Shown here: positions 4,867 through 48,676 of the stretch, piece after piece
How the letters are laid out: the number at the start of each line of letters is the position of its first letter
Numbering within the stretch: position 1 is the stretch's first letter
Virus record (IMG/VR): IMGVR_UViG_3300026078_000003
Coordinates: 1 to 63,876 of that record
Reading direction: 5' to 3' (one strand)
Length of the DNA: 63,876 nucleotides
Source: a virus
Program-made: the position numbers and the translations under genes
Notes under the pieces: generated by a model
Told to the model about the DNA's origin: nothing
What the model saw: the letters and a program-made list of their open reading frames with translations, nothing else
Database searches by the model: none

Positions 4867-5736
4867 TTATAGCATCTCTCTTATCTTAACCACTACCTCG
4901 AAATTATTATTGTCGCTTAAGCTCACATCTTGTAGGGACTCAAGCAATCCATAAGTGATCTTCTGCATTTGAAAACCATTTCCATTCGTATCGCCAACGT
5001 CTTCGATCAACATTATTGCTTGTGATATTCCTACATCGCGACGTAATTTTGCCATTCCGCCTCGATAAGCGCTCTCGTTCAAAAATCTCAACGTGAATGA
5101 TTTTCGCCCTGATCGCGGCCGTATTCTTGGAAATACCGCGCCACCTTCAGAAGTGGTAATTTTCTGTTCTTCGTCTTGTCCCTCTGAAACGGTGCCTTGT
5201 TGACGGATCGCGTTGCCGATGCTGGACGAGATACCGTAATCAACGATTAGATTCCCGATTTCAAACCATGCAGCGGTTGCATATCCAGCGGCATTGCGCG
5301 CGGCTTTTCGCGGTGCAGGATCATTAATCGTAATCGTAAAAACGTTATCCGGGATGCCTTGAGGCTCATAAATATACGAGTGAATTTTAAGATAGTCACC
5401 GCTATCGGTCGAAGGCCACAATGGTTTATTTAGCTTCGAGTATCCGAGATCGCCTGTGACTGAGAATGTTCCCGCACTTGAAGCGTTGTTATGTGTCAGC
5501 ACTAGACATCGGATCACGCTCACGCCCTGCGCTGCTTTCGCCGCCGTAAGATCTACAGTAAAAACAATCGGCGAATTGAGATCAATAAATCTGCAACGAT
5601 CTGTCGGCTGTTGCGACGAAATCATATTATTAAGTGGCGTATCTCCCGCAGTGATCGCGGTAGATGATAGGCTTCCCCAGCGAGATAGTTTATCGCTGAT
5701 AATCAGCCAGTCGAGATTTGTATCGATGAAGGTCAC
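4867..5736 (-). CDS. Minor tail protein, 289 aa
   Basis: The start is GTG at 5734-5736, one base after the stop of the small HTH gene upstream (TAA A GTG), implying translational coupling. The protein is rich in beta-strand-like segments and has two recognisable halves: an N-terminal domain about the tail surface (VFTVDLTAAKAAQGVSVIRC) and a C-terminal region with FTLRFLNESAYRGGMAKLRRD. It lies between the 810-residue tail protein and the distal tail genes. It could be a distal tail or baseplate-hub-like component. Confidence 0.7.
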   Translation of the reverse strand: MTFIDTNLDWLIISDKLSRWGSLSSTAITAGDTPLNNMISSQQPTDRCRFIDLNSPIVFTVDLTAAKAAQGVSVIRCLVLTHNNASSAGTFSVTGDLGYSKLNKPLWPSTDSGDYLKIHSYIYEPQGIPDNVFTITINDPAPRKAARNAAGYATAAWFEIGNLIVDYGISSSIGNAIRQQGTVSEGQDEEQKITTSEGGAVFPRIRPRSGRKSFTLRFLNESAYRGGMAKLRRDVGISQAIMLIEDVGDTNGNGFQMQKITYGLLESLQDVSLSDNNNFEVVVKIREML

Positions 5737-5737
5737 T

Positions 5738-5945
5738 TTATTTGTGATCTTTAAGCGCGTCGGCTATTTGATTGAATCGACGTAACATTTCTGATTTTTT
5801 CCGTTCAAATGCTTCTGCGTATTTGGCATCAATTAAGCCATCGATAATGTTCGGACATAGAAACGCCCACTCTTCGCGCTGACTCAAAAAGCATTCCGGA
5901 ATACAAATATTCTTTCAAGAATTTGGATTGTGTCTCTGTTATCAT
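5738..5945 (-). pseudogene. Small HTH protein (terminase-small-subunit-like fold), single frameshift
   Basis: Translation from ATG at 5943-5945 gives MITETQSKFLKEYLYSGMLF and SARRVGVSMSEHYRW, then stops. Shifting by one base restores LIDAKYAEAFERKKSEML and a stop at 5738-5740, one base before the next gene's GTG. Joined, the product is about 68 residues, with the 'ARRVGVSxxxxYRWL' helix-turn-helix seen in small terminase subunits (compare the gene at 41.0-41.7 kb). The correct downstream coupling argues that the shifted frame is the original one. A sequencing error, a recent mutation or recoding at CTTAATTG could each explain it. Confidence 0.6.
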
Positions 5946-5963
5946 ATTTTTTCTCTTCTTTGC

Positions 5964-8396
5964 TCAATCTACAGCCAAAAACTCTCCACTATCTGTTATC
6001 AAAACTTCTTCATCCTCTGTCGCGATATAAGTATATTCGTAATCCAGTCCCCATGCCTCCAGCACCGTATTTTGATTCGCGTCCTCTGTCCTCGCTACAA
6101 TCACTAATAACGCCGCTTGTAAATTCTCGACATAACTCCCATTCGCCGCTTGAATGTTCGCCTCGAATTCGTCGCCGATTTCATATTGATACGTTCCCCG
6201 CGTCAACGGTAGCTCATAGGTCGCCCGGTTCACCCCCCACAGAAGTTGCCGCCGTACTGCTTCAGGATACACCTCTGCCGGGTCGTCGTAAAGCGTCTCC
6301 AGGACGAGGTCCTGAGCAGCGGGCCTGACGGCCAGGACTCCCGTGTCGATCGGCGTGGAAAGGCTCCTGGAGGCCTTCCCGAGGTCGGCTACGGCCGCCG
6401 GGGACAGAGACGTCGAGAGCGCGGTTGGGTCCTGTGTCGTTGAGTAGTTTCGATATTTAAGAGTTGTACGTTTGGCGGCGAGAGTCTTCGCGATCATCGT
6501 GACTGCGGATGCTTGTACATCGTTCTCAGTCAAGCGGAATTTTGGAACGCTCGGCGCTTCTAATACGCGGGTCGTGAGCATGCCGCGACGAGTAAAGATC
6601 GCCCATGCTCCAGATTTTTTCGCGATCTCCTGAATCAAATCCCAAATTGTACGATTACTGTTACGTAAACCAATTTCAATTGCCATTGGATATTTAAACG
6701 TCATTTGGGCAAAAGCAACTAAATCCACTTCATCGTCAGTGAGACGGTTCGATGGAAGTGGATAAACTTGCGCTAGTCGCTTAACAACACTAGCGTAGTC
6801 TTTTGTATCTGTCGAAACCGTAACTGTCAACGTCCCCTGTGGAGCGTTTTGCAACCGTAATAACGTCCGCGTTCCCATTCGCGAGATGACACAATGGCCA
6901 GCAACCGGTGTCCAGTCGTAAATATCACTTACGGGCGAATCCATCGTTAGCGTCATCGCGCCTTTATCGCTTACGCTACTTACCGTGATATTTACACTCT
7001 CTGGATTTCTAGTCACCTCATATACATAATTTTGCGAATCAACGTTAACGGGCTCGACTTGTCTATTGATTCCTTCCCACAATGGCGGATACTGTCCCGC
7101 GAGAGTTGCATCGCCTTCGAGAGAGCCCACCCATTGAGCAGTCCCATTGATTGTTAGATTGTGGCCACCACCGGATGTATCGAAAAGCGTTGAACCTGTT
7201 CCTTCGTTTATCGGATAATACGATTTACAAATTGTTGGATCGGCAAGAACCAAATCTCTGGACGCGTTTAGTTCATCGACTGTTAACGCTCGCGGATGAA
7301 TTCTTATCTCGCTTATGTCTACGTCGGCGAAATTTGCGCTCGCGTCGGGCGTTCTTAACAACGCCAAATTCGATAGTACCGTGTTGAATGTTCCCGATAT
7401 ACTCCCATTATATATCTGCTGCGTCATAAAATCTAAATCGACAACAAGGCTCAATTTCAACGTCGCAACATCTAGAATATACGCGAGATGATACATCTTG
7501 TGGGGCTCTAGCACGCCCGAGCCTAGACTACTCGCGGTCACTACGAATTGAGCTCCGCTATCGTTTCTAATCGCTACTTCAGGAGCATTGTTCAAAACAC
7601 CACTCGCGAATCTCAACTCTCTCTGTCCTGCTAGCGATCCATTTCTCCATCCAACGATATCTTTTTGAGTAGCAGCGCTTGTTCGCGGACGTACAAAAAT
7701 CTCAACCGTCATTGATCCCGCAGGACACAGACATGTGCCGCTAACATATGTATCGGTACCGTTTCCTCTTAATGCTGCGCCAGAGCCTCGATAGGTTTCG
7801 TTGATGATATAGCTAGACAGTCTGTAGCTCTTGTCAAGCAACGGAACATGGCATTCTGTCGCATTGCTAGAATTTACCGTCCCTGCTACACCATCAAATA
7901 GAACTCCAAATTCGCTTAGCTTACTTTCCGGCCGACCTAATAGTATTTGAACTTGTGCCGCGTCCCATTCGTAAGATTTTAGCGGCAATAATCTCCCCGT
8001 CGCAAGCTCAAAAACAAACTCGCCTTCTTGCCCGCTTCCTGTTGCGGCTTCGGGATTCGACACGCTAGAGTTGTCAATGATCTGACCGCTCTGCATCACT
8101 CGGTGAGTTGAGTAATAAGGGTTTAACAATCCCGCGCGGAATAACGCATGCGGCAGGGGCGTATGAACCGCATCTGGCAAAGTATCGTTGTCTTGGGATG
8201 CAAAACCGTCGCCTAGTTTCACGGTAACAATCTCGCCAGTGACAAAGTTTTTAGGCCTCGCGTAAACTAGAAACGTTCTTCTTGCTTGCGAATCTGTTAG
8301 AAATGCTTGAAACGGATCGCCAACAGATAAATCGCCTGAAAGATCGTCAGGCAATCCGAAAGGCGATAATCCGAAAGGACCGAAACCGAAGACCAT
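5964..8396 (-). CDS. Large tail-tip / tail structural protein with lectin-like domain
   Basis: 810 residues. The N-terminal region GFGPFGLSPFGLP and residues to about 180 resemble tail-hub proteins. Residues about 200-400 form a concanavalin-A/LamG-like jelly roll (MTVEIFVRPRTSA, HLAYILDVATLKLSLVVD, ISEIRIHPRALTVDELNAS). The rest (ESVNITVSSVSDKG, RLAQVYPLPSNRLTDDE, IWDLIQEIAKKSG) resembles the later part of siphovirus tail-tip proteins. It follows the tape measure, as expected for tail hub/tip genes. A short GC-rich patch at 6230-6440 differs from its surroundings. Confidence 0.75.
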   Translation of the reverse strand: MVFGFGPFGLSPFGLPDDLSGDLSVGDPFQAFLTDSQARRTFLVYARPKNFVTGEIVTVKLGDGFASQDNDTLPDAVHTPLPHALFRAGLLNPYYSTHRVMQSGQIIDNSSVSNPEAATGSGQEGEFVFELATGRLLPLKSYEWDAAQVQILLGRPESKLSEFGVLFDGVAGTVNSSNATECHVPLLDKSYRLSSYIINETYRGSGAALRGNGTDTYVSGTCLCPAGSMTVEIFVRPRTSAATQKDIVGWRNGSLAGQRELRFASGVLNNAPEVAIRNDSGAQFVVTASSLGSGVLEPHKMYHLAYILDVATLKLSLVVDLDFMTQQIYNGSISGTFNTVLSNLALLRTPDASANFADVDISEIRIHPRALTVDELNASRDLVLADPTICKSYYPINEGTGSTLFDTSGGGHNLTINGTAQWVGSLEGDATLAGQYPPLWEGINRQVEPVNVDSQNYVYEVTRNPESVNITVSSVSDKGAMTLTMDSPVSDIYDWTPVAGHCVISRMGTRTLLRLQNAPQGTLTVTVSTDTKDYASVVKRLAQVYPLPSNRLTDDEVDLVAFAQMTFKYPMAIEIGLRNSNRTIWDLIQEIAKKSGAWAIFTRRGMLTTRVLEAPSVPKFRLTENDVQASAVTMIAKTLAAKRTTLKYRNYSTTQDPTALSTSLSPAAVADLGKASRSLSTPIDTGVLAVRPAAQDLVLETLYDDPAEVYPEAVRRQLLWGVNRATYELPLTRGTYQYEIGDEFEANIQAANGSYVENLQAALLVIVARTEDANQNTVLEAWGLDYEYTYIATEDEEVLITDSGEFLAVD

Positions 8397-8557: not shown

Positions 8558-11500
8558 TTATCCTCCAACTCCCGCTCTTCTGTGTCTCGGCCGCGTATTT
8601 GTTACCACAGTATCGAGTGCGTCCGCCGCGCGCTTCATCTGAGTAAACAACTCGTCACTATTTCCACGTGATTCAGTTCTAAACTTCAAGATATTATCTG
8701 ACAAACCCTTTACTGCGCCGCTCAAATCTTGCAATGCCGTAGCGTTTTTATTCTGCGCGTCTAGAGCCGCGTCTACTTGCGGCTGCTGAATTTGATCCAT
8801 CGCGGTTGCGATCGCGTTAGGCGTTGTAGTGGTCAAATTATCATTGATCGCGGATAAAGTATGATTTGATACTGAGCCGATCCCTGAGATATTCGATAGA
8901 CCACCGACAATCGCGGCAGTATCTGGGCTCAAAACGTGAGCGACAGCAGGAATAAGCTTAATCCTGTTAATCGTATCGTCAATTCCTGAAAGCACCGAGG
9001 CCGTTAGCTCGCTCGAAGGCGAGAACGCCACGAGATTTTTGCGATACGTCTCGGCAAAGTCTCTAAACTTGGTGATCGCGTCAGCATCACCCGTAAGGGC
9101 CTTGATTCGATCGGCCTCGTAATCAGCTTTAGAGTTCGCCAAAGCCGTTCTCGCGTCAACTAATCCAAGCGACGAATCTGTATGGAGCGACGTCTGATAA
9201 TCTAATAACGACTGAACCGCAGATTTAAGCGAATCAGCGGCGGTATTCTGATTGGCAGCGGCATCCGATAGAGAGCTTGCCGCAGTTGTCACACTATCGA
9301 AGCTAGGAACCCAATTCTTACCTCCCGGCAAAATATCTTTATTGGAATCGAGCCAGCCAAAAGCTTTATCGAGTAGATCGATCTCGTCTTTAGTTAAATC
9401 GCCCTTAGCTTTTAGTAGCACATATTCATCTCGAAGCTCAATCATTTTGATCTGGAAATTAATAACTTCTTGCGTCTGTAACAATTCGTTATGTAACAAG
9501 TGCTGCTGTGCGTTGATGTTACTATCCGCGATAACATTTGATAGATCACCCACGAGAGACGAGAATTGCTGCATTGACAACTTCTCAATTGCTTTATCTT
9601 CGGCTGCGGTCAATTTTCCTAACATATTCGCGGTTCTTACCGCACCATATCCCGCGCCTTCGATCTCTTTCTTCATATCCTCGAAAGGTTTACGAGCCTG
9701 TTCAAATGCATCATTCGGATTAACAAGCTGATTAAATCGATCCGCGACATCTTTTTGATGAGCCTTTGTCGCGGCCTCGATTTCTTGATGTTGCAGCGCT
9801 AATAACTCTTCTCTAAGTTTTTTATCCTTGCCCGCCGCGAGTAACTGAGCCGCATAGTCGTGATTGATCTGTGCGAGCTGTTGATGGAATTGGTCCATTC
9901 CATCAAGTGACATCTGGAAACGTTTATCATCAATGAACGATTGAACAGATTGTTTATCGCTTCCCTTTCCCCCACCAGCATGAGGCGCTTTCCCCGCAGC
10001 AGCTAACGCCGCAGCGAGCGCATCGTTAAACATCCCGGCGAATTCTTCCCACTTCCCGAGCATTTCGAGTTGCAATTTAATCTGATCGAACTCAATTTGT
10101 ACTTTGACCTTTGCCCATTGCGCGGCCTCCTTAGCATATTTCGGCGACGCCTGGAGATACTGATACAATGTATCGAATATCCCCATGTTAATTTCTTGAT
10201 CGGTCAGCGCTTTGGGAACCTTATTCAGCTCGTCAATATAGTGCGCGAGAGTTTCGCGAAGATGAGCGAGCGCTGCGTCACTATCGGAGCTGAGGGTTTT
10301 GACCATATCGCCAAGATCAAAACCGCCATCCTGTCCACCGCCGCGTAAATCGGGGCCTCCGCCACCACCAGAATTCGGGCCATGCCAGCCTGGGTTAGTT
10401 TCCAGTTGACTAATTTGGCGCTGTACATCTTCGATTTGTTTTTGAAGGGCTGCGGTGATCGAATCTGAAGCTTCACCGATTCCATCCGATAGAGATTTCA
10501 GCGCGGCAAGTCTATCACTGGCGGTTGTATCAATTCCGAGAGCAGAATTTTTCTCAGCCTGAGTCGCGCGATCTCTCGCGGCAACGGTCGCATCCGTAGA
10601 CAATCCTAATCTTCTTTCGGCCTCGATTTCGCGATTATATTTCTCAACGATCCCGATATATTGAGCGCCTGCGTCACCTAAGCGATCGTTCCTGGCCTGT
10701 GTTGCCGTCTGGATATTTTGCTCAATTTGATCTAGAGTTTGACCGATTGACAGTTGCAGCGCCTGTACGATTTCTTTTGATACGCCAGCAAAATTTGCCT
10801 GAGTTATCGCCGCAGCTATTCCGGCCTCCATTGCTTCTTGAGCAGAATCAAATTCGCCCACCCAAACACCCGCAACATAGGCGCCGAATTTTTTACCGTC
10901 GTTGCGTGCCCGGATTGTAATCTGTGGCAAATCCATAAGAATGCCACCGATCGCATCCGTGATCTGCTGCAACATTTTACGAAGAGCATCAGAAATTTTT
11001 TTCCCTGCCTGATCGAAATACGAGGGTGAGGACCAATCTCCGCCCGAGACAGTTAATTGCGTAGCGGTACCGAATTTGTGAGCTTCCTGATCTTTTATCA
11101 TTTGATCTACAAGCGAATAGACCGCATAAAAGATCTGAACTTCAGCAAGAATGCCGCCCATCGCACCGCCAAGACCGGCGCCGCCAACACCCATATTGTT
11201 TAACATTCCGCCGACCTGCTGACCCGTTTGATATGCGGACTGAACATCGGCGATGACTTTAGAAAGGTAATTGGCAATTTTTCCTAGAAATCCTCCAAAT
11301 AGACTGCCGATGTTGTTTAGCGCTGAAGACCATGTCGAGGCTTGATTTGCCCAATATTCCGAATCTAAATGTTCAATATAAGCCTGTGCGTCTTTGACTT
11401 GTTGTGAGGTGCGTCCGGTGCTGCCAGAGACGTATTGTTCGATTCGATCGCGTTCCTCTTTGTATAGATCAAACGGCGTTTTTGACGCACCTGAGATTGT

Positions 11501-13972
11501 CTTAGAAATCTGAACATCCTGAAGGTCCTGTAAATCTTTCTTTATTGCATCCGATATACTTCCGATGTTGATGCCCAGCGATTCAAATATTTTTTCAGTC
11601 TCATCTATGATTCGCTGACCTTCTTCGATAGATCCGTGTCCGATGTTAGCAATTATTTCTAGATATTGCGTCTCAAGCTCTTGTAAATATTTCGATTGAC
11701 CAGTATCAACACGAGATATCGCGGTCTGTAAACTCGCCTGATTATTAAGACTCCCTAAAGCTTTCGCGGCCTCTAGAGCATCTTTCATCGAATTTGTAAA
11801 ATCATGCTCTCGGCGCACAGCCTCAGTGATTGAATCTGTCAAATCATCTTGAGTGTGCTTGAGCGACTCCAGAACCTTACGCTTGATTTCGGCCTGAATC
11901 GCGTTCTCTCTAGTTGCGACGCTGGTACCTGTTAGCTCGTCGGTTAGTTGCGCCTGCAATTCGAGCTGTTTGTTTAGAAACTCGGAATTCTCTTTGCTAG
12001 TCGATAGCACAAGATCCGTCGAGTGTTTTAGATCAAAATTCTTTCCAGCCAGATCTCCAACGACCTTAACTTGCTTTTGATATGATGCATTCGACGCATC
12101 GATTTCGGCTCTAATTTTCGCCGCATCGCCTGCGCGCTTATCGTCATTGCCTTTTCTTTCGAGATCTTGAAGTTTTTCGATCTCGGTTCTGTGCTCTTTT
12201 TCAAGCTGAGTCACTGCCGCGAGGACTACTTTACGGCGCTCTTGGGTCAGCAACTCTCGCGCGTAGACGTCTAGCCCTTGCTCCGCCGCCGACAACAAAT
12301 GACTTTGCTCGACGTCTTCTTCTACAAGTTTTTTTGTCAGATCCGCGAGCTTGTCGGTGTACGCACGAATAATTTTATCCGACTCTAGAACGAGATCATT
12401 TAACTTTTTTTGTTTGTTGCCGATTTCGTCTTGAGCGCTTCCGTGTTTTTTTGCTACATCGGTGTCACCTTCAAGAGCTTGTTTGTGCGCCATCCAACTA
12501 ATGATTGCATCATCACTCGCCTTTTGATTCTTACCGAGAGCTACTGTGTCCGTGAGAAGAGAATCGGTCGCAGTTTTGAGTGCCGATCCGATGCCGTTTT
12601 TAACGGGCTCCCAAGCCGCACCCATGATCGGAACTTTAGACATAAACTGAGCAAATTCGCCCAGTTCTTCTAGAATCGAAATCAGGGCTTTATCTATGAT
12701 TATAGCGACTTCGTCCCAGCTTGCAGCTAAATCATGAAAAACAACTATCGTGCCGTATACTTCGGTTCTTAGAAAATCTCCAATAGTATGACCGAAATCA
12801 GACGCCCCCTTCGATGCCTGTTTCCAGTCGTCAACGGAGCCGAATAGATCATGCGATAAATATTCCAGCGCGGGAATCAATTCCGATGCGATACCTTCCT
12901 TCAGCTCGCCATAAACAAATTTGATTCTGCCTGCTTGAATGCCCAGCGTCTCGTGAGCGCCCGCAGCCAATCCAACCTTTTCTGTCAAAATATCAAAAAT
13001 CTTGGCTTGATACCCAGCGATATCGCCAGTATCAACCATCGATTTTAACATCGCTTGTTGGCCGGTTGTTAAATCAACGCCGATCTCTTTGGCCGCTCTT
13101 AGCGATCTTGTATTACCGTCAATCAGCGGCCCGATTTTTCTTGCGGCTTCGGCGGCTGTAATTCCTTGAGCGCGTGCATAGGCGTTAACTGCGTCTAACG
13201 CTTTCGGATAGACATCTTCGGTGAGATTTTTAAATCGTGTGAGAACGAGCGCTGCTTGTATTTCTTCTTCCTTGGTTCGGCCAGTCAACAACGCATACGA
13301 TCCCGCAAGCTCAATGATCTCGTGTGAAGACAAGCCAGAATACGAGCCTGTATTTTTAAGTGAGTCATTTAGCCTCTCGACAACAGCCTGTAGCTTTAAC
13401 CCCTCCTCTACAGCGTCTTTGATAAATTCAAACGCCGCAAATGCAACGCCGACAGCAACCAATCCAGCAGCCAATCCGGCAACAATCGGAAGAAGCGGGC
13501 CCAATCCCTTAATCATCTCACCCAGCGAGCCGACCTTTCCCGCGAGACCTCCGAGACCTTCGGCCATCTCATGCGCTTCGGCTCCAGCAGGCCCCATTGA
13601 GCCTGTCAACTTGATAACGTGTTCTATTAGCGATTTGAGAGGTGATTCGTTCTCAGAATATTTTTGTTTGGCTTTGTCGAGAAGCTCCAGATATTTCTCG
13701 TGCGACGGGATCAATCCCGATTTATACGCGTCAGATAGCGCTTTATGGGCTTTTTCTAGTTTCTGTTCGGCAGCAATAGTAGGGTCAATCGACGCGGCAA
13801 CTTTTTTATATGTGCTTTCGATTCCCGCGAGTTCTTTCAAATAAGAGCTTAGGGTTGTGCGTGATATGTTCGCCTGCTTCGCGATGTCGTCTAAGCTCTT
13901 ATCAACGTTGGATTTGTCAACTCTCCAAGTGAGAAGACCTTCGAGCGTTCCTATGTTGACGGTGCCGGACAT
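8558..13972 (-). CDS. Tail tape measure protein
   Basis: 1804 residues, by far the longest gene. It has long coiled-coil and Ala/Gln/Lys-rich stretches, a hydrophobic segment near residues 155-185 (LLPIVAGLAAGLVAVGVAFA) and another near 945. It sits directly after the tail assembly chaperone genes, where tape measures are found in siphoviruses. At about 0.15 nm per residue it would set a tail of roughly 270 nm. The protein fixes tail length and is ejected with the DNA. Confidence 0.95.
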   Translation of the reverse strand: MSGTVNIGTLEGLLTWRVDKSNVDKSLDDIAKQANISRTTLSSYLKELAGIESTYKKVAASIDPTIAAEQKLEKAHKALSDAYKSGLIPSHEKYLELLDKAKQKYSENESPLKSLIEHVIKLTGSMGPAGAEAHEMAEGLGGLAGKVGSLGEMIKGLGPLLPIVAGLAAGLVAVGVAFAAFEFIKDAVEEGLKLQAVVERLNDSLKNTGSYSGLSSHEIIELAGSYALLTGRTKEEEIQAALVLTRFKNLTEDVYPKALDAVNAYARAQGITAAEAARKIGPLIDGNTRSLRAAKEIGVDLTTGQQAMLKSMVDTGDIAGYQAKIFDILTEKVGLAAGAHETLGIQAGRIKFVYGELKEGIASELIPALEYLSHDLFGSVDDWKQASKGASDFGHTIGDFLRTEVYGTIVVFHDLAASWDEVAIIIDKALISILEELGEFAQFMSKVPIMGAAWEPVKNGIGSALKTATDSLLTDTVALGKNQKASDDAIISWMAHKQALEGDTDVAKKHGSAQDEIGNKQKKLNDLVLESDKIIRAYTDKLADLTKKLVEEDVEQSHLLSAAEQGLDVYARELLTQERRKVVLAAVTQLEKEHRTEIEKLQDLERKGNDDKRAGDAAKIRAEIDASNASYQKQVKVVGDLAGKNFDLKHSTDLVLSTSKENSEFLNKQLELQAQLTDELTGTSVATRENAIQAEIKRKVLESLKHTQDDLTDSITEAVRREHDFTNSMKDALEAAKALGSLNNQASLQTAISRVDTGQSKYLQELETQYLEIIANIGHGSIEEGQRIIDETEKIFESLGINIGSISDAIKKDLQDLQDVQISKTISGASKTPFDLYKEERDRIEQYVSGSTGRTSQQVKDAQAYIEHLDSEYWANQASTWSSALNNIGSLFGGFLGKIANYLSKVIADVQSAYQTGQQVGGMLNNMGVGGAGLGGAMGGILAEVQIFYAVYSLVDQMIKDQEAHKFGTATQLTVSGGDWSSPSYFDQAGKKISDALRKMLQQITDAIGGILMDLPQITIRARNDGKKFGAYVAGVWVGEFDSAQEAMEAGIAAAITQANFAGVSKEIVQALQLSIGQTLDQIEQNIQTATQARNDRLGDAGAQYIGIVEKYNREIEAERRLGLSTDATVAARDRATQAEKNSALGIDTTASDRLAALKSLSDGIGEASDSITAALQKQIEDVQRQISQLETNPGWHGPNSGGGGGPDLRGGGQDGGFDLGDMVKTLSSDSDAALAHLRETLAHYIDELNKVPKALTDQEINMGIFDTLYQYLQASPKYAKEAAQWAKVKVQIEFDQIKLQLEMLGKWEEFAGMFNDALAAALAAAGKAPHAGGGKGSDKQSVQSFIDDKRFQMSLDGMDQFHQQLAQINHDYAAQLLAAGKDKKLREELLALQHQEIEAATKAHQKDVADRFNQLVNPNDAFEQARKPFEDMKKEIEGAGYGAVRTANMLGKLTAAEDKAIEKLSMQQFSSLVGDLSNVIADSNINAQQHLLHNELLQTQEVINFQIKMIELRDEYVLLKAKGDLTKDEIDLLDKAFGWLDSNKDILPGGKNWVPSFDSVTTAASSLSDAAANQNTAADSLKSAVQSLLDYQTSLHTDSSLGLVDARTALANSKADYEADRIKALTGDADAITKFRDFAETYRKNLVAFSPSSELTASVLSGIDDTINRIKLIPAVAHVLSPDTAAIVGGLSNISGIGSVSNHTLSAINDNLTTTTPNAIATAMDQIQQPQVDAALDAQNKNATALQDLSGAVKGLSDNILKFRTESRGNSDELFTQMKRAADALDTVVTNTRPRHRRAGVGG

Positions 13973-29192: not shown

Positions 29193-30743
29193 CTACCAAC
29201 TAACTTCATATACTACCGCCTCTTCATTCGGTTTCAACTTCAATACACTCAGCATAAGCCCGTCCGCGCGGTCAGGGCTAGGTAATTTTCTTTTCTCTTT
29301 CATATCGCGCTTAGATTCGATCTGTATTCGGCCGGCATTGTGAAAATATTTCAAGCTTGACAACTGCGCCGCGAGTTGCTCATCTGCCGGATCAATATCG
29401 ATATTCCCTTCTTTGAACAATTCTCGCAAATGCCAGAATCCCTCAGCGCGATAATTCGCGAAGTGAATTGGATCATTGCCCGTGCGCCCAACTTCAACAC
29501 CGACAACAAGAGCTGCGCGACGAGAGTAGTCAGGTTGATCTCGGCGAATAGTTTGATCGTTAGAGATTTGTTTCGCACGATCCGCAGCTCCGTGCCCGAT
29601 TCCAATGGCGTCTATTTTGGCAGATTTGGCGTTAGGTTCGCGCTCAAGCTCAAGTAAAAGATACTCTAGCGTTTGCATTGTGTCTGGATTGTTATTATCC
29701 AGAACTAATTTGGCGCGTCTGCCTTTGCGTTTATATATCACGTTTTTGTTATTACCGCCTCCAACATCGCAACCTAACTCAACATCGTAACATTCTTCAG
29801 TTTCAAATGCGTCGTTATCCCATCTCTTTTGAGCTGCCTTGATCCACGATAGCGGAATCAACGTATCATCTGTGTTCTCTGGAAATTCCGCCAACACTTT
29901 AGATTTATAATATGGAGAATCTTTGCCATACTCTTCCTCGCGCTCCTGTACCCAGATTCGCGATACTAAGCCTAGACGCGCTTCCTCTGATACCTCCTCG
30001 CCTGTCAAATTTGGCGTCTCAAACGCTGAGATTCTAATAACATTATAATGTGGCTTGTAGTTAGGCTCGCAAACTTTCGCAAATTCGGTTGACGCATCGG
30101 CGGGGTTACCGATTAGTAACAATCGCGCCCGCTCATTGCCTAACAATCCTTTGATCGCGTCCAAGAGAGCTTTCTCGTATTCGCCCGCTTCATCTACAAT
30201 CACGAGCACATCCGGCGCGTGAATACCTTGCAGTGCTGATGCGTTATGTTCAGCAGGCTTACGTCCAAAAGCGACAAGCTCCTCGCGAGTAGATCCATCG
30301 GATTCGTCAACGATTGGAACATACCATTCGGTTTGATTTAATCTACCTGGAAGCTTTCCTTTTGAATGCGCACGAGAGATCTCGGTCCATAAAACTGCCT
30401 TGACCTGCCCGCCAGTTATCGAAGTAGTGATAACGCGCGCAGTACCAAGCGGCCGCGTATCGATGAACCAACAAGCACAGCGGGCCGCGATGAAGCTCTT
30501 TCCGGACTCATAGCACGAGGGTACGGCAGTGTAGCGGTTGTCGCGAACAGATTCTAAAATCTCTCGCTGTTTAGACCAGAGATGTTCGCCTAGTTTGTCC
30601 TCGCACCAGAATACAGGATCATCGCGGTATCGAGCGCGTTTGACGGATTCGCGCAGAGATTCTATGGAGGGAATGAGAAGAGATGATGATTGCTTTGGCG
30701 TATCGAGAGAACGCATGCGGGAATAGGCGGGAGCGTGAGACAT
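29193..30743 (-). CDS. terL: Terminase large subunit
   Basis: 516 residues. Walker A is near residue 80 (CYESGKSFIAA), Walker B and the catalytic Glu near residue 178 (VLVIVDEAGE), and the nuclease domain begins near residue 319 (DVELGCDVGGGNN). Length and order match TerL. It packages DNA with the portal. The N-terminal MSHAPAYSRMRSLDTP segment is repeated in a separate short gene upstream at 30960-31109. Confidence 0.92.
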   Translation of the reverse strand: MSHAPAYSRMRSLDTPKQSSSLLIPSIESLRESVKRARYRDDPVFWCEDKLGEHLWSKQREILESVRDNRYTAVPSCYESGKSFIAARCACWFIDTRPLGTARVITTSITGGQVKAVLWTEISRAHSKGKLPGRLNQTEWYVPIVDESDGSTREELVAFGRKPAEHNASALQGIHAPDVLVIVDEAGEYEKALLDAIKGLLGNERARLLLIGNPADASTEFAKVCEPNYKPHYNVIRISAFETPNLTGEEVSEEARLGLVSRIWVQEREEEYGKDSPYYKSKVLAEFPENTDDTLIPLSWIKAAQKRWDNDAFETEECYDVELGCDVGGGNNKNVIYKRKGRRAKLVLDNNNPDTMQTLEYLLLELEREPNAKSAKIDAIGIGHGAADRAKQISNDQTIRRDQPDYSRRAALVVGVEVGRTGNDPIHFANYRAEGFWHLRELFKEGNIDIDPADEQLAAQLSSLKYFHNAGRIQIESKRDMKEKRKLPSPDRADGLMLSVLKLKPNEEAVVYEVSW

Positions 30744-42902: not shown

Positions 42903-43159
42903 TGTGGGAGATCACTCCGGTCAACTTCGATCTCTAGTAGCCTAAGCATCGCGACATGAACTTCATTGCCATCTACTCCATATTCAACGACTCTGCCGCC
43001 AATCAGATCAAAAGTAAGGCATTGTCTTGCTCCTTGCTTCCACGGACCAAAATCATCTAACATTACACCCTCGATAATTAGGCAGTCTAAATGATTTTCA
43101 TGCAATTTTTCAATCGTAATTGGAAATAGCCGCCATGCATCAAACGTTGTGTTAGTCAT
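42899..43159 (-). CDS. Hypothetical protein, 86 aa
   Basis: Start taken at ATG 43157-43159 (MTNTTFDAWRLFPITIEKLH) after GGGGAGGATTGAA; its start overlaps the polymerase stop (ATGA). Contains GARQCLTFDLIGGRVVEYGV. Unknown function. Confidence 0.6.
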   Translation of the reverse strand: MTNTTFDAWRLFPITIEKLHENHLDCLIIEGVMLDDFGPWKQGARQCLTFDLIGGRVVEYGVDGNEVHVAMLRLLEIEVDRSDLPQ

Positions 43160-44565
43160 TTCAATCCTCCCCATGTTTTCGCAAAATGTCCTTCCGCGCT
43201 AATCGGCACTCGCAATTTAACCCCGCTATGATTTATCATTCCGTCGAGCACAAGATTACTCAGCTCGTCTTGGGTCTCTTGTGCTTCATCACACGTAAAA
43301 ATGTACTCATCGTGCACCTCCAGTCGCCAATCAATCCCTCTTCCTCTCTGCTGTAAAGTATACACCCGAGGCCCTAGCCACGCCATCGCCGCCTGTGCCA
43401 TGTGTTGGGCCGTCCCCTGGATGACCAAGTTGAAGGCTTGGCGGGCGGCTTCAGCGGCCTCTCCACGGCGGCTGGAGCGGATCGAGGGCAGGTAGCGGAT
43501 CATCCCGGGCTGGCGCCCCCGGCCGTAGTAGTCGCGGATAAAGCCGGTCTGGCGAACGAAAGACTCGACGGCTCGTGAAGCTCTTCCCAGCTCCGGATAG
43601 ATCTCGTCTCTAATATCGTTACAGAGTTTCTCGCAATCTTCAACGTTCCCCCATGGATGCGTGCCGTCCTCATTAAGAGGGATATTCATGAAGAATTGAT
43701 CTTGAAGACCGAGACCCGCGAGACCATTTAAAACTCCAAATGTTGCAGTTTTTGTCGGATTGCGTTCTCTGTCGGTAACGTCTTCTAGACGGATGCCATA
43801 GTTACGGGCTGCGGCCTCGCGGTGAGGATCGCGAGATTTATGTTTGGCGTTCTCAGATTTTTTGCATTTAGAGACAGAGGGTAAGCGTTCGCCACAATAG
43901 CGACAGGTGGTGAAAATTTCGTGAAGGAATTCGTCTTCTGAGAAATCAGCGGCAACGCATAGCTCCTGCGCGCTAAAGTCGAATGAGGCAAATAGTTTCC
44001 CTTCGGGCGCGACGTAACATGCACGGACCATCTTGCCAATTTCTGAACGAGTCGGCATTTGTAATAGCGGCGGCTTTGCAATACTCAAGCGTCGCGATAC
44101 AACAGTAACCGGCTGGATATTACCGTGAATGTAGAATAGATCGGATTCGGGTTCGCCAGCATCTTCGCGACGCGCTGCTTCATCTTCCATCAAGTCTAGA
44201 ATGAATTTGACGTATTTTGATTTGATAGATAAATGTTCCTTGATCGTGAAGTTGAGACCCACAAAAGCATCGGTATGGCGGGCATGTTCGATTGATTTTT
44301 TGCCGACGGATATGCCTTTTTTCGTTCTCTTGCGCGCGACAACTCCGCGACGTTCGATTTCGTCCGCAACTTGTGGTTGAGAGTTAACATTAATGCGATA
44401 TCCGAGAAGAGTGTTGAGTTGATTTTGAAGGCGGTTTGTAGTTGAGTCTACGTAAGCGGACAGAGCTTCAAATTTCGAGCGTGACGCTGGCATTCCATTG
44501 CGCTGCATTTCCTCGAAAATAGGAAGCACGCGCATGGCTTGAGAGTGAAGATGAGAGAGGCTCAT
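43156..44565 (-). CDS. Family A DNA polymerase, polymerase part
   Basis: 469 residues. Motif A is near residue 193 (FASFDFSAQEL, replacing DYSQIEL), motif B near residue 270 (KTATFGVLNG), and motif C near residue 417 (EVHDEYIF). There is no exonuclease domain; that is in the gene at 45569-47005, separated by three small genes. Together they would form a split PolA for phage replication. A GC-rich patch (about 43370-43600) covers the part just before motif C. Confidence 0.9.
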   Translation of the reverse strand: MSLSHLHSQAMRVLPIFEEMQRNGMPASRSKFEALSAYVDSTTNRLQNQLNTLLGYRINVNSQPQVADEIERRGVVARKRTKKGISVGKKSIEHARHTDAFVGLNFTIKEHLSIKSKYVKFILDLMEDEAARREDAGEPESDLFYIHGNIQPVTVVSRRLSIAKPPLLQMPTRSEIGKMVRACYVAPEGKLFASFDFSAQELCVAADFSEDEFLHEIFTTCRYCGERLPSVSKCKKSENAKHKSRDPHREAAARNYGIRLEDVTDRERNPTKTATFGVLNGLAGLGLQDQFFMNIPLNEDGTHPWGNVEDCEKLCNDIRDEIYPELGRASRAVESFVRQTGFIRDYYGRGRQPGMIRYLPSIRSSRRGEAAEAARQAFNLVIQGTAQHMAQAAMAWLGPRVYTLQQRGRGIDWRLEVHDEYIFTCDEAQETQDELSNLVLDGMINHSGVKLRVPISAEGHFAKTWGGLK

Positions 44566-45132: not shown

Positions 45133-45572
45133 TTCAAATTCTTTCTTATCTCATCGCGAATTTCCATCAATAACTTGCCCAGATGATTCTCTCCTTCATT
45201 TTGCCCATCTACACCCCAGAAACGATCGCCCCAAGTATTTCCTTCAATGAGGACAACACTGCCGGTTGCTAATAGTTTAGAACACAAAACAGAATTTCGG
45301 AATTTCTGTCTAAGAAGCGAACGCATAACAGGAATTCGTAACTGATTCCATCCTTCACGTAAAGTAACTACACGGCCTAGCCGCTTAGCTTCTCCGGGCG
45401 TTTTTGCGTTTCGTATTGTTTCTCTTTGGTTTACATTAATTGTTTTTGCTGCCTGATACGCATGTTCTACAGACGGATAGATCATTTCATCTAGTGTCAC
45501 AACACAAGGCCAGAAATTAGAAAGGAACCTATACGGTCCTTGAAAGTTGTTTATCTTGCTTGGAATAGTCAT
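45129..45572 (-). CDS. NADAR-domain protein (candidate anti-DarT factor)
   Basis: 147 residues. FQGPYRFLSNFWPCVVTLDE, the motif PSVEHAYQAAKT (Glu36), GNTWGDRFWG (112-121) and NHLGKLLMEIRDEI (129-) match NADAR over the full domain. NADAR proteins remove ADP-ribose from guanosine-modified DNA, and a phage NADAR (AdfN) overcomes DarTG defence in T4-like phages. This gene probably has that role; that is inference from family. The start overlaps the upstream polymerase-exonuclease stop. Confidence 0.9.
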   Translation of the reverse strand: MTIPSKINNFQGPYRFLSNFWPCVVTLDEMIYPSVEHAYQAAKTINVNQRETIRNAKTPGEAKRLGRVVTLREGWNQLRIPVMRSLLRQKFRNSVLCSKLLATGSVVLIEGNTWGDRFWGVDGQNEGENHLGKLLMEIRDEIRKNLK

Positions 45573-47005
45573 TTTACGCTCCTTGTTTTTTCGTCTAATT
45601 CTCTGTCCCGTTCATCCATCGCGATAGACAGCTTCGGTTTAAGCCGACCAGTCGCGTCCGGATCGCGGCCAGCGTAATATATTGCTCTCTTTAACGGAAT
45701 ATCATCTAGCGTTCCGTAAGGAAATACTCCATACAATCTCTCGACAGGCGCGCGGACAAACTTAGGGATTTTTCGCCAGCGTTTCGCGGGATCAGTCGGC
45801 CCGTCTGCATTGACTTTGCCGCTTTCGACGTCGGATACGATGCGGTCGATATACGCGCCAATAGAGTTATATTGTTTTGGTTTATAGCTGCCGTCGCTTT
45901 GGCGCAAAACAACGATATCCGGTTTATTCCATTTTCGTTGTGCTGCGATTTTCAGATACTCCACTTGCTTTTGTTTTCCGATGTCGCCAATCAATAACGT
46001 ATATTCCTCCATTTTCATCTGAAGCCAACGATACGCCAGAGTTTTGAGCGATTTTGATTCCAAACGCAATAGATACGCCGAGTACATTGTATCCCAAATC
46101 TCGGCGTAACGCAACTCTAATCCCATCGAGCGGCATATCTGTGTATCAATCATACAGCCGGAAGGTGTTCCCGCTTGATGAGTGATATAGGTTGTGCCGC
46201 GTTCGGCGCAGGTCTGAAGATAAGAAATCGCGTCGTCGAAATCATCTCGTGAACATCTCAAGACATAGCCGATCCCGGGTTCTGGCGAGATCTGAACCGA
46301 CCAGGGGTTAGATACCCAGCCCTCGGTGTCCATTCCAAATTCAAGAGGCGCAGAAAGAACAGAGTCATGATAGGGCTCTAGAAGAGAGATAAGCTCACGT
46401 CCGCCAACATCGTGATATTGTTCTTTGCCGTCGAGAGGATCGGGGGTAACGAGGAATTCAGATAAAGCGGCATTAGGATTCGAGCGCAGTATTTTGCAGA
46501 ATTTGGCGACGGTAGCATAATCTTCCGCGATCTGTGGCTTCATATCGGTAGAATGAAAGCCGAACGCGGGATGATATATTGGTAAGATGTAAATGAGTCG
46601 ATTTGTGTCAGGCTCGCGCCACGAAAATAACAAACGATGTACGTCTTCTAGATCACAATTTGGGTCTAGAAACCATCGCGCCGCAAATCGGCCGACAGCG
46701 ATAATTAATCTCGGTTGCTTATCTCGGATCTCATCTAGTAGAGCCTGCCGCCAGAAAGAAATTAACTCAGGCGTAGGATCGGGATTGCCCGCGATGTATG
46801 TTTTACATACGTTGGTTTTATACCACGAACGCGACGAGACATTATGAGGCTCTAGATACCATTCCTGTTCCAGTCCAGAGCGTCCGACAAATGGGCGTCC
46901 TTTATAGAATTCTTCCTCGCCTGGAGCCTCGCCGATAGACATGACGATAGAGCGGCCCGGAGGACCAAAACCATAGACGGCGGAAGAGAGAGGATCGAAA
47001 TCCAT
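45569..47005 (-). CDS. UDG-like domain fused to 3'-5' exonuclease (PolA-type)
   Basis: 478 residues. The N-terminal part has the uracil-DNA-glycosylase family pattern (GEAPGEEEFYKGRPFVGRSG near residues 26-45, and IYHPAFGFHS near residue 155). The C-terminal part has a DnaQ/PolA-type DEDD exonuclease (FGMDTEG near residue 223, WDTMYSAYLL later). This resembles SPO1-type DNA polymerases, which carry a UDG-like module, but is separated from the polymerase domain. The pair would form a replication enzyme. Confidence 0.85.
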   Translation of the reverse strand: MDFDPLSSAVYGFGPPGRSIVMSIGEAPGEEEFYKGRPFVGRSGLEQEWYLEPHNVSSRSWYKTNVCKTYIAGNPDPTPELISFWRQALLDEIRDKQPRLIIAVGRFAARWFLDPNCDLEDVHRLLFSWREPDTNRLIYILPIYHPAFGFHSTDMKPQIAEDYATVAKFCKILRSNPNAALSEFLVTPDPLDGKEQYHDVGGRELISLLEPYHDSVLSAPLEFGMDTEGWVSNPWSVQISPEPGIGYVLRCSRDDFDDAISYLQTCAERGTTYITHQAGTPSGCMIDTQICRSMGLELRYAEIWDTMYSAYLLRLESKSLKTLAYRWLQMKMEEYTLLIGDIGKQKQVEYLKIAAQRKWNKPDIVVLRQSDGSYKPKQYNSIGAYIDRIVSDVESGKVNADGPTDPAKRWRKIPKFVRAPVERLYGVFPYGTLDDIPLKRAIYYAGRDPDATGRLKPKLSIAMDERDRELDEKTRSVK

Positions 47006-47023: not shown

Positions 47024-47248
47024 CTAGTCGAAAATCAAAACGGGAACATTGACCAATTTTGAATTCGGATTGGAATGACAGAAAGGACAGGTCGGTCCGC
47101 AATAATAGACGATGCCACAAATTATATGAGCATCAATTCTGTATTCATCAATAAATCTTAAGGTCAGAATTTGGCCAGATTCTCGCGTGATTATCGGAGT
47201 ATCGTCGGGACACTCCGCGAGCGCCTCAATTAGTTCTTTCTTTGTCAT
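47024..47248 (-). CDS. Hypothetical CxxC protein, 74 aa
   Basis: ATG preceded by GGAGATAA, which is itself part of the repeat array beginning at 47248. The product MTKKELIEALAECPDDTPII, then TCPFCHSNP, is a small protein with a CxxC pair. It is followed by the UDG-exonuclease gene. Confidence 0.65.
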   Translation of the reverse strand: MTKKELIEALAECPDDTPIITRESGQILTLRFIDEYRIDAHIICGIVYYCGPTCPFCHSNPNSKLVNVPVLIFD

Positions 47249-47545
47249 TTTATCTCCTGTTCCTTGTCGCTCCTCTGATATGGTTATCTCTACTATTTTG
47301 ACTCGCTCCGGTTCATTGGTTATCTTCCGCTATGTGACTCGCTCGTGCCACTAGATTATCTCGTCCGTTATGGCTCGCTCAAGCGGCTTGGTTATCTCAC
47401 GCCAGGCGACTCGCTCACTCCTTATGATTATCTCCAAACAAAGGGCTCACTCATCCCAACATGTTTATTTCTCTTCTCATTGATTCGCTAACCTCTTATG
47501 ATTATCTCCGTCTGCGTGGCTTACTTCGCTCTGTTATCTTCTCTC
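47248..47545. repeat. 18/36-nt tandem array, main block (8 units)
   Basis: A regular array of a 36-nt unit: GGTTATCTC, 9 variable bases, GACTCGCTC, 9 variable bases. Block A copies begin at 47248, 47282, 47318, 47354, 47390, 47426, 47463 and 47500. Block B copies begin at 47266, 47300, 47336, 47372, 47408, 47444, 47482 and 47518. Spacing is exactly 36 from 47282 to 47426. The variable 9-mers are mostly different. The two blocks on the minus strand read GAGATAACC and GAGCGAGTC, similar to each other, so the array may have come from an 18-nt unit. Confidence 0.85.
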
Positions 47546-48357
47546 GCGATATAGTCCACATGGTGTAGAATCGCAATTGCATACGGCACTGGCGCTTTGA
47601 CACCTAAAATCTCTTCGCACATTACCTCGTGAAGATGAGCTAAGAAGATCTTGACCGCATAGCGCTTCGCTCTAGCGTGAATATGCGCTGGTGGTAGCTT
47701 TCCTTCACTATAGGCTTTGTAGGCTTCGGTATCCTTACCGATGTTTTTGATCTCAAGAACTCTCGCGGCCTGATCTTTAAACTGAAGCTCATCGTTTCGT
47801 CTGGTTTCTAGCTCTTTGCGCTCGCGATAGAGTCGCCCGTAGACGGATTTTTCATTGTTGCTTATCTTGACAAAGGATTCGCCCGCTTTCCAGCAAACGA
47901 CTTTTAGGCGCGCGTTAAATGGACGGCGTTCACCTTTCTTCCATGTAATGGTCGGATCGAGTCCAGCGAAACGCCAGATGTGGCATGCTGTCGGGGCTTT
48001 GTGAATGTCGATGTGGGCCAGTAATCCCGCAGCAATGACAGGTCCGATACCTGTGACCGAAATGAGCCATTGGCCTACTTTATCGTTCTCGACATAAACT
48101 TTCAGGGCGCGCTTGATCTGATTTTCGAGAGTCTCGCTCTGTCCTGCTAGCCATTGGAGTACGCTATGTGGTTCTTCGGAGGCATTGAGAGCGCGGACAC
48201 GCTCGCCTGACCGGATTCGATCCTCTTGCATGGAGTAATAGGAATCGACCAGGAAACGAGCCTCGCCTGGACTGAGAGTAGATGAGGCGCTAGAGAGATC
48301 GCGCGTAAGTCGCTGAACGGGATCAAGAGACACAATAGAGCTGTTTTCGTCATGCAT
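47521..48357 (-). CDS. IS110-like protein (Transposase_20/HhH domain)
   Basis: About 278 residues, start taken at ATG 48355-48357 (MHDENSS, GAAAGGA upstream). LISVTGIGPVIAAGLLAHID, then RFAGLDPTITWKKGERRP, corresponds to the C-terminal Transposase_20 domain of IS110/IS116/IS902 transposases. The usual N-terminal DEDD/RuvC domain is absent, and the region around the expected catalytic Ser is not clearly conserved. The gene is flanked on both sides by an 18/36-nt repeat array. It could be a domesticated guide-RNA-type protein or a decayed transposon. Confidence 0.7.
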   Translation of the reverse strand: MHDENSSIVSLDPVQRLTRDLSSASSTLSPGEARFLVDSYYSMQEDRIRSGERVRALNASEEPHSVLQWLAGQSETLENQIKRALKVYVENDKVGQWLISVTGIGPVIAAGLLAHIDIHKAPTACHIWRFAGLDPTITWKKGERRPFNARLKVVCWKAGESFVKISNNEKSVYGRLYRERKELETRRNDELQFKDQAARVLEIKNIGKDTEAYKAYSEGKLPPAHIHARAKRYAVKIFLAHLHEVMCEEILGVKAPVPYAIAILHHVDYIAREDNRAK

Positions 48358-48401
48358 GAAGAAAATTCCTTTCTCGAAGGTAGACAAACTTCAGGAAGTA
48401 T

Positions 48402-48465
48402 GGTTATCTCCGCTCAAAATGGTTCATTCAATCTAGATGGTTATCTCGGCCCGGATGATTCGCCT
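48402..48465. repeat. 18/36-nt array, second block (2 units)
   Basis: GGTTATCTC at 48402 and 48439, with second blocks GGTTCATTC (48421) and GATTCGCCT (48457). These match the units on the other side of the IS110-like gene. The left end of this block lies between the IS110-like start and the next gene; the right end runs into the coding end of 48428-48676. Confidence 0.75.
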
Positions 48466-48676
48466 TTTTAACTCTCCTCCTCTTATGATCGATTAACTCC
48501 GCAACAATTATTCGTATTTCATCGCGAGAGGCTCCATCAATAGCGTCCGAATATGTTAAGTCGTTTTCTGACGGATCACTATCGAAATTATCTCCTGTTC
48601 TTTCTTGCCAAGAATCCTCAAGAGCGTAACTGTCGTCGTAATTTATTCTCTCCCGCACGGGGAGAGCAGCCCACAT
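48428..48676 (-). CDS. Hypothetical protein, 82 aa
   Basis: Contains ELIDHKRRRVKKANHPGRDN near the C terminus, which is encoded inside the second repeat block, so the array may have extended into the gene. N-terminal part is acidic and polar. No function. Confidence 0.55.
   Translation of the reverse strand: MWAALPVRERINYDDSYALEDSWQERTGDNFDSDPSENDLTYSDAIDGASRDEIRIIVAELIDHKRRRVKKANHPGRDNHLD

What the first reader, a model, noticed from the sequence alone, without database searches (positions are those of the whole stretch)
47248..48465. IS110-like gene flanked on both sides by a strictly periodic 18/36-nt array of constant and variable 9-mers
The Transposase_20-type gene (47521-48357) has eight units on its 3' side (47248-47545) and two on its 5' side (48402-48465). 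Each unit is GGTTATCTC, 9 variable nt, GACTCGCTC, 9 variable nt; five successive units are exactly 36 nt long. The variable 9-mers are mostly different. IS110-family proteins use a bridge RNA with short guide segments (established for IS621). A protein without the DEDD domain next to many short constant/variable units could be a guide-array system or a domesticated remnant. Read on the plus strand the array also encodes a six-residue repeat ([GD]-[YS]-L-x-x-x), and on the minus strand block A resembles a ribosome binding site. Both are alternative explanations.
Basis: partly seen in the sequence, partly recalled or inferred. Interest (0 to 1): 0.85.

Follow-up and report, generated by a model that had tools for sequence, protein, structure and literature searches.

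The report
Phage TIGR-TasA dual-spacer guide array
This phage carries a small RNA-guided DNA-binding system of the TIGR-Tas type described in 2025: a nuclease-free guide-binding protein flanked by arrays of short paired guide spacers. It is a clear member of a known kind, whose natural target remains unknown.

Summary
On the minus strand, the same strand as the gene, the array reads edge GAGATAAYC, 9 nt, loop GAGCGAGYC, 9 nt. It has 14 repeats downstream and 4 upstream of the gene. A repeat model trained without the window scores the downstream array 126.9; the best of 100 simulated windows scores 22.3.

The protein is not an IS110 transposase. Its best sequence and fold matches among solved structures are TasR (9mty) and TasH (9w04, 21kl). 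IS621 is far behind and there is no nuclease domain. Gene and array together match every feature of a dual-repeat TIGR-TasA locus (Faure et al. 2025, PMC12045711) that I could test, except the usual terminator.

In IMG/VR, 67 of 68 relatives in one independent set carry the array, nearly always on the gene strand. In 1,821 regular units the repeats are conserved (0.4-1.9 bits per position) and spacer positions 2-9 are essentially random (0.01-0.1 bit). Loop-repeat bases covary as base pairs.

No natural target was found; an apparent enrichment did not replicate. Verdict: a new member of a known kind. Side finding: in related phages, array turnover breaks mainly at loop repeats.

The parts
47521..48357 (-). 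tasA: solo Nop-domain Tas protein, about 278 aa from the ATG at 48357 (288 aa from the upstream TTG at 48387)
   Evidence: ORF; PDB sequence matches to TasR 4e-14 and TasH 3e-11, profile 5e-34 and 8e-24; AlphaFold pLDDT 84.6 with the top 11 Foldseek hits all TasH/TasR; phrog_4285 4.7e-54
47281..47526 (-). Downstream TIGR array: 7 edge repeats (GAGATAAYC-like) alternating with 7 loop repeats (GAGCGAGYC-like), 9-10-nt spacers, 6 complete tigRNA units
   Evidence: Chain score 126.9 against a maximum of 22.3 in 100 Markov controls, with repeat models trained without the window
48401..48465 (-). Upstream TIGR array: loop, edge, loop, edge; 1 complete tigRNA unit (A=ATCTAGATT, B=ATTTTGAGC)
   Evidence: Chain score 35.8
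47248..47280 (-). Degenerate 3' end of the array: truncated loop GAGCGACAA and an edge-like GGAGATAA that overlaps the ribosome-binding site and start codon of the next gene (ORF 47024-47248)
   Evidence: Sequence, ORF list; inference for the overlap of roles
47527..47545 (-). Start of the downstream array inside the last codons of tasA (GAAGATAACAGAGCGAAGTAA, encoding EDNRAK-stop)
   Evidence: Sequence reading
48466..48499 (-). Possible decayed extra unit upstream (GAGTTAATC...), inside the 3' end of ORF 48428-48676
   Evidence: Sequence reading only

Best explanation
This is a phage-borne TIGR-TasA locus with dual-repeat arrays on both sides of tasA, all on the minus strand. Inferred working, by transfer from TasA, TasR and TasH of the founding study: the array is transcribed with the gene and cut inside each edge repeat into 36-nt tigRNAs (half edge, spacer A, loop, spacer B, half edge). 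A TasA dimer holds one tigRNA through the box C (CCA) and box D (GA) ends of the edge and loop repeats. It opens a 16-18-bp DNA site whose two halves pair with spacer A on one strand and spacer B on the other. With no nuclease domain, TasA should bind and bend the DNA without cutting it. That would most plausibly repress transcription or replication of competing mobile DNA (about 45%), or regulate phage or host genes (about 25%). Shown here: gene family, fold, array anatomy, strand, conservation of repeats with free spacers, repeat covariation. Not shown: transcription, processing, DNA binding, any target.
For: The protein's closest solved relatives are TasR and TasH by sequence and by fold (IS621 only from rank 12). 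No nuclease domain in Pfam; close relatives are similarly short. The array follows the published definition: two alternating 8-12-nt repeats, 9-nt spacers, up- and/or downstream of tas. Salicola phage CGphi29, the founding study's TasH locus, carries AAGACAACCA/AAGCGAGCCA repeats in the same place. Most relatives of the first set and 67 of 68 of an independent set carry the array; 120 of 122 chains of the second set are on the gene strand. Information is 0.4-1.9 bits per repeat position and 0.01-0.1 bit at spacer positions 2-9. Loop positions 3-8 pair in 119 of 122 loci (GC 75, AU 31, UA 9, GU 4) and 4-7 in 122 of 122 (CG 103, UA 16, UG 3), as expected of paired box C/D bases.
Against: No terminator-like site follows the window's array; published arrays typically have one. 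The two units next to the gene are 37 nt with degenerate repeats, so part of this copy may be decaying. No target was found in the window's own genome or in related phages. Covariation counts are not corrected for relatedness.
Confidence: 0.88

Rival explanations
1. A decaying IS110-type transposon that lost its DEDD domain; the repeats are leftovers of its bridge RNA or ends.
For: Pfam Transposase_20 hit, 1.4e-5; PHROGs calls the family 'transposase'.
Against: IS621 is a much weaker match than TasR/TasH by sequence (1.7e-4 against 5e-34) and by fold. Hundreds of relatives match; those examined are of the same short length and keep their arrays, so it is not a remnant. IS110 has a single two-loop bridge RNA, not arrays.
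Confidence: 0.02
2. The array is protein-coding (a plus-strand hexapeptide repeat) or a set of ribosome-binding sites.
For: The last edge-like GGAGATAA overlaps the ribosome-binding site of the next gene.
Against: No frame is open through it on either strand. The repeats are found in over 100 relatives on the gene strand with free spacers.
Confidence: 0.01
3. Binding-site array (iterons) for a DNA-binding protein, with spacers only as filler.
For: Strict 18-nt spacing; spacers look random.
Against: Two alternating repeat types, RNA-type covariation inside the loop repeat, and a protein of the Tas family whose members bind exactly such RNA (PMC12045711).
Confidence: 0.03
4. A TIGR-TasA locus that is no longer functional in this phage.
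For: Degenerate repeats near the gene, 37-nt units, overlap with coding ends, no terminator.
Against: tasA is full-length and aligns with its relatives without stops; four successive units are perfectly regular.
Confidence: 0.06

Closest known systems
TIGR-TasA, dual-repeat type (e.g. Flavonifractor plautii FpTIGR; Faure et al. 2025, PMC12045711)
   Same: Solo Nop protein without nuclease, alternating edge and loop repeats, 9-nt spacers, arrays up- and downstream of the gene
   Different: Own repeat sequences (GAGATAAYC / GAGCGAGYC); phage-borne; short array (7 complete units); no terminator seen
TIGR-TasH of Salicola phage CGphi29
   Same: Homologous Nop domain, same array layout and near-identical loop repeat AAGCGAGCCA
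   Different: TasH has an N-terminal HNH nuclease; the window protein has none
TIGR-TasR (PDB 9mty)
   Same: Best sequence match in the PDB, same Nop fold
   Different: RuvC nuclease absent here; TasR repeats are UG...CCA
IS110 / IS621 bridge-RNA transposases
   Same: Distant Nop/Transposase_20 homology; two guide segments pairing to opposite strands
   Different: DEDD domain absent, array instead of one bridge RNA, fold and sequence match much weaker
VIPR (PMC13142463)
   Same: Phage-encoded small RNA-guided DNA-binding system
   Different: RAMP protein and YNNGG pentanucleotide repeats; unrelated protein and RNA

Membership tests
TIGR-TasA | Nop-domain protein of the Tas family | tested here: met
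   PDB sequence and profile searches; fold search top 11 hits all Tas
TIGR-TasA | No nuclease domain | tested here: met
   Pfam shows no RuvC/HNH; the only N-terminal extra in the model is about 20 low-confidence residues
TIGR-TasA | Two alternating 8-12-nt repeats with 9-nt spacers | tested here: met
TIGR-TasA | Array beside the gene, sense strand of the gene | tested here: met
TIGR-TasA | Repeats conserved within a locus, variable between loci; spacers variable | tested here: met
[quoted passage not shown]
   CC(A) and GA ends in both repeats; loop 3-8 and 4-7 covary; not corrected for phylogeny; pairing between successive edge repeats was not supported
TIGR-TasA | Truncated edge repeat then rho-independent terminator at the 3' end (typical, not universal) | tested here: not met
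   Degenerate end but no terminator-like site; next gene starts at once
TIGR-TasA | Processing to 36-nt tigRNAs bound by the protein | not testable with these tools
   Needs small-RNA sequencing
TIGR-TasA | Tandem-spacer DNA binding (spacer A on one strand, spacer B on the other) | tested here: inconclusive
   No reproducible natural targets
IS110 transposase | N-terminal DEDD catalytic domain | tested here: not met
   Only Transposase_20 found; 288 aa without room for it
IS110 transposase | Single bridge RNA with two loops next to the gene | tested here: not met
   Array of 36-nt units instead
VIPR | YNNGG tandem repeats and RAMP protein | tested here: not met
   Repeat unit is 36 nt; protein is Nop; definition from PMC13142463

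The most novel reading that the evidence does not exclude
Phage TIGR-TasA arrays evolve by recombination between loop repeats, so the unit that is swapped (spacer B, edge, next spacer A) is offset by half a unit from the unit that works (the tigRNA). Each swap re-pairs the half-guides of two neighbouring tigRNAs and gives combinatorial re-targeting without any acquisition machinery. In pairwise comparison of five related phages 66 breakpoints fall at loop repeats and 20 at edge repeats.
Probability: 0.3. Interest if true: 0.7.

Novelty: new member of a known kind. Interest (0 to 1): 0.4.

Why it matters
TasA is the commonest and least understood Tas effector; the founding paper calls its role, its targets and the way arrays grow open questions. 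The window adds a clear phage example. The search behind it shows a large phage family (408 IMG/VR hits in one scan) with over 2,000 parsed guide units, among them groups of related phages whose arrays can be compared unit by unit. That makes array turnover, and in time target finding, directly testable. The label 'transposase' that PHROGs gives this family (phrog_4285) is misleading.

Tried and rejected
Targets. (1) Own genome: single 9-nt window spacers occur 8 times against 7.8 expected. (2) Composite sites spacer A + reverse complement of B, gap 0-2, in 2.3 Mb of related phages: 9 exact matches against 2.5 in shuffled pairings, 0 of 60 shuffles as high. With one mismatch allowed there was no excess (144 against 136). 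In a replicate with new arrays there was none (2 against 3.6, and 0 against 1.6). The row 'old units x new targets' is circular, because its 12 hits are loci that fetched with that very pattern. I therefore reject the signal as chance. (3) IMG/VR scans with two guides conserved in related phages: 14 and 70 matches. The one large cluster is near-identical copies of one structural-protein site, which is database redundancy.

Rfam: nothing credible. Single-protein pattern search of IMG/VR: no relatives; the alignment-based search found them. Covariation between successive edge repeats: no clear signal. Promoter scan: no more sites than in shuffles.

Full report
Observation. The window is a tailed-phage contig: terminase-like ORF at 29193-30743, tape-measure-sized ORF at 8558-13972, family A DNA polymerase at 43156-44565. 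On the minus strand at 47521-48387 lies an ORF of 288 aa, with an alternative ATG at 48357. I built repeat models from relatives only and chained them at spacings of 16-20 nt. This finds exactly two arrays in the whole window, both on the gene strand: 47526-47281 (14 repeats, score 126.9) and 48465-48401 (4 repeats, 35.8). Other sites score at most 17 and the best of 100 Markov copies of the window scores 22.3. The regular core (edges at 47434, 47398, 47362, 47326, 47290) is spaced exactly 36 nt.

Identity of the protein. Pfam finds only a short Transposase_20 match. Against all PDB sequences the best match is 9mty (4e-14), which the fold search names as TIGR-TasR; second is TasH (3e-11); IS621 is at 0.43. 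A profile from 30 relatives gives 5e-34, 8e-24 and 1.7e-4 in the same order. An AlphaFold model (pLDDT 84.6, pTM 0.81) has TasH or TasR as its first eleven Foldseek hits and IS621 after that. There is no RuvC, HNH or DEDD domain, so the protein is of the TasA type.

Identity of the array. The founding study (PMC12045711) defines TIGR arrays as two alternating 8-12-nt repeats, edge and loop, with 9-nt spacers A and B, placed up- and/or downstream of tas, repeats conserved within a locus and varying between loci. The window fits. Its closest described comparison, Salicola phage CGphi29 (the study's TasH locus), has edge AAGACAACCA and loop AAGCGAGCCA downstream of its gene. Microcystis phage Mvi-JY20 has ACGAAACCCA and ATGCGAGCCA.

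Relatives. A first IMG/VR scan gave 61 relatives and one scan of prokaryote genomes gave three more loci, including Acidobacteriaceae KBS 96 and Propionivibrio aalborgensis. Nearly all have 36-nt arrays beside the gene. Of the few missed by the 36-nt model, L032, L046, L048 and L052 show arrays of other unit length; L037/L038 show none. A second scan matched 408 relatives, of which the best 80 loci were kept. Among the 68 not seen before, 67 have the array (the other contig ends at the gene), and 120 of 122 chains are on the gene strand.

Anatomy of the unit. Over 1,821 regular units, information per position is 0.4-1.9 bits in the edge, 0.7-1.9 in the loop and 0.01-0.1 at spacer positions 2-9. 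Spacer position 1 is A or G (1.2 bits) and belongs to box C, CCA. The guide core is therefore 8 nt per spacer, as reported for the CGphi29 system (16 nt in all). Loop positions 3-8 are complementary in 119 of 122 loci with four pair types, and 4-7 in all 122 with three. In the edge repeat, positions 3-8 also covary within loci (z = 5.5). These counts are not corrected for relatedness.

Working. By transfer from TasA, TasR and TasH (PMC12045711): 36-nt tigRNAs cut within edge repeats, a protein dimer, spacer A on one strand and spacer B on the other, no PAM. TasA has no nuclease, so binding and bending without cutting is expected. What it is for is unknown in the literature; silencing of competing mobile DNA is my first guess. 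Every step after 'array plus TasA protein' is inference here.

Targets. None found. An enrichment of A + rc(B) sites with gap 0-2 in related phages (9 against 2.5) vanished with one mismatch and in an independent set. Hits from two whole-collection scans were chance or redundancy.

Array turnover. Five related phages (L015, L022, L023, L026, L027) share ordered arrays. In pairwise comparison, unchanged neighbours flank replaced blocks, the commonest length being two spacers, and 66 breakpoints lie at loop repeats against 20 at edge repeats. So spacer B of one tigRNA and spacer A of the next are often swapped together. Genome pairs are not independent and the alignment sets the register, so this is a lead only.

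Verdict. A genuine, intact-looking TIGR-TasA locus in a phage. The system is published, hence a new member of a known kind; novelty lies in the comparative data, not in the window.

Noticed in passing
L015, L022, L023, L026, L027 arrays: Ordered arrays shared between related phages, with short blocks of spacers swapped between unchanged neighbours; breakpoints mostly at loop repeats (66 against 20 at edge repeats).
   Followed up: partly
L032, L046, L048, L052: Relatives whose arrays have unit lengths other than 36 nt (about 33-37) and different repeats (e.g. GAYTTTCA with GAGCGAGCC in L048).
   Followed up: partly
L037/L038 around 5300-6400: A relative with no dual-repeat array; long inverted repeats (AACCACC...GGTGGTT) follow the gene and may be a stem-loop type array.
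   Followed up: no
L034 3738-4492: GGCTACGGC-type 18-nt repeats (coding-like, glycine-rich) beside the TIGR array, a trap for period-based array finders.
   Followed up: no
L309 2496-2745 and L035 1713-1812: Rare arrays on the strand opposite to the gene.
   Followed up: no
window 45569-47005: One ORF joins a uracil-DNA-glycosylase domain to a weak 3'-5' exonuclease match, separate from the family A polymerase ORF at 43156-44565.
   Followed up: no
PHROGs phrog_4285: The family is named 'transposase, integration and excision', yet all 30 members of the alignment of these Tas-like proteins match it; the label is probably wrong.
   Followed up: yes
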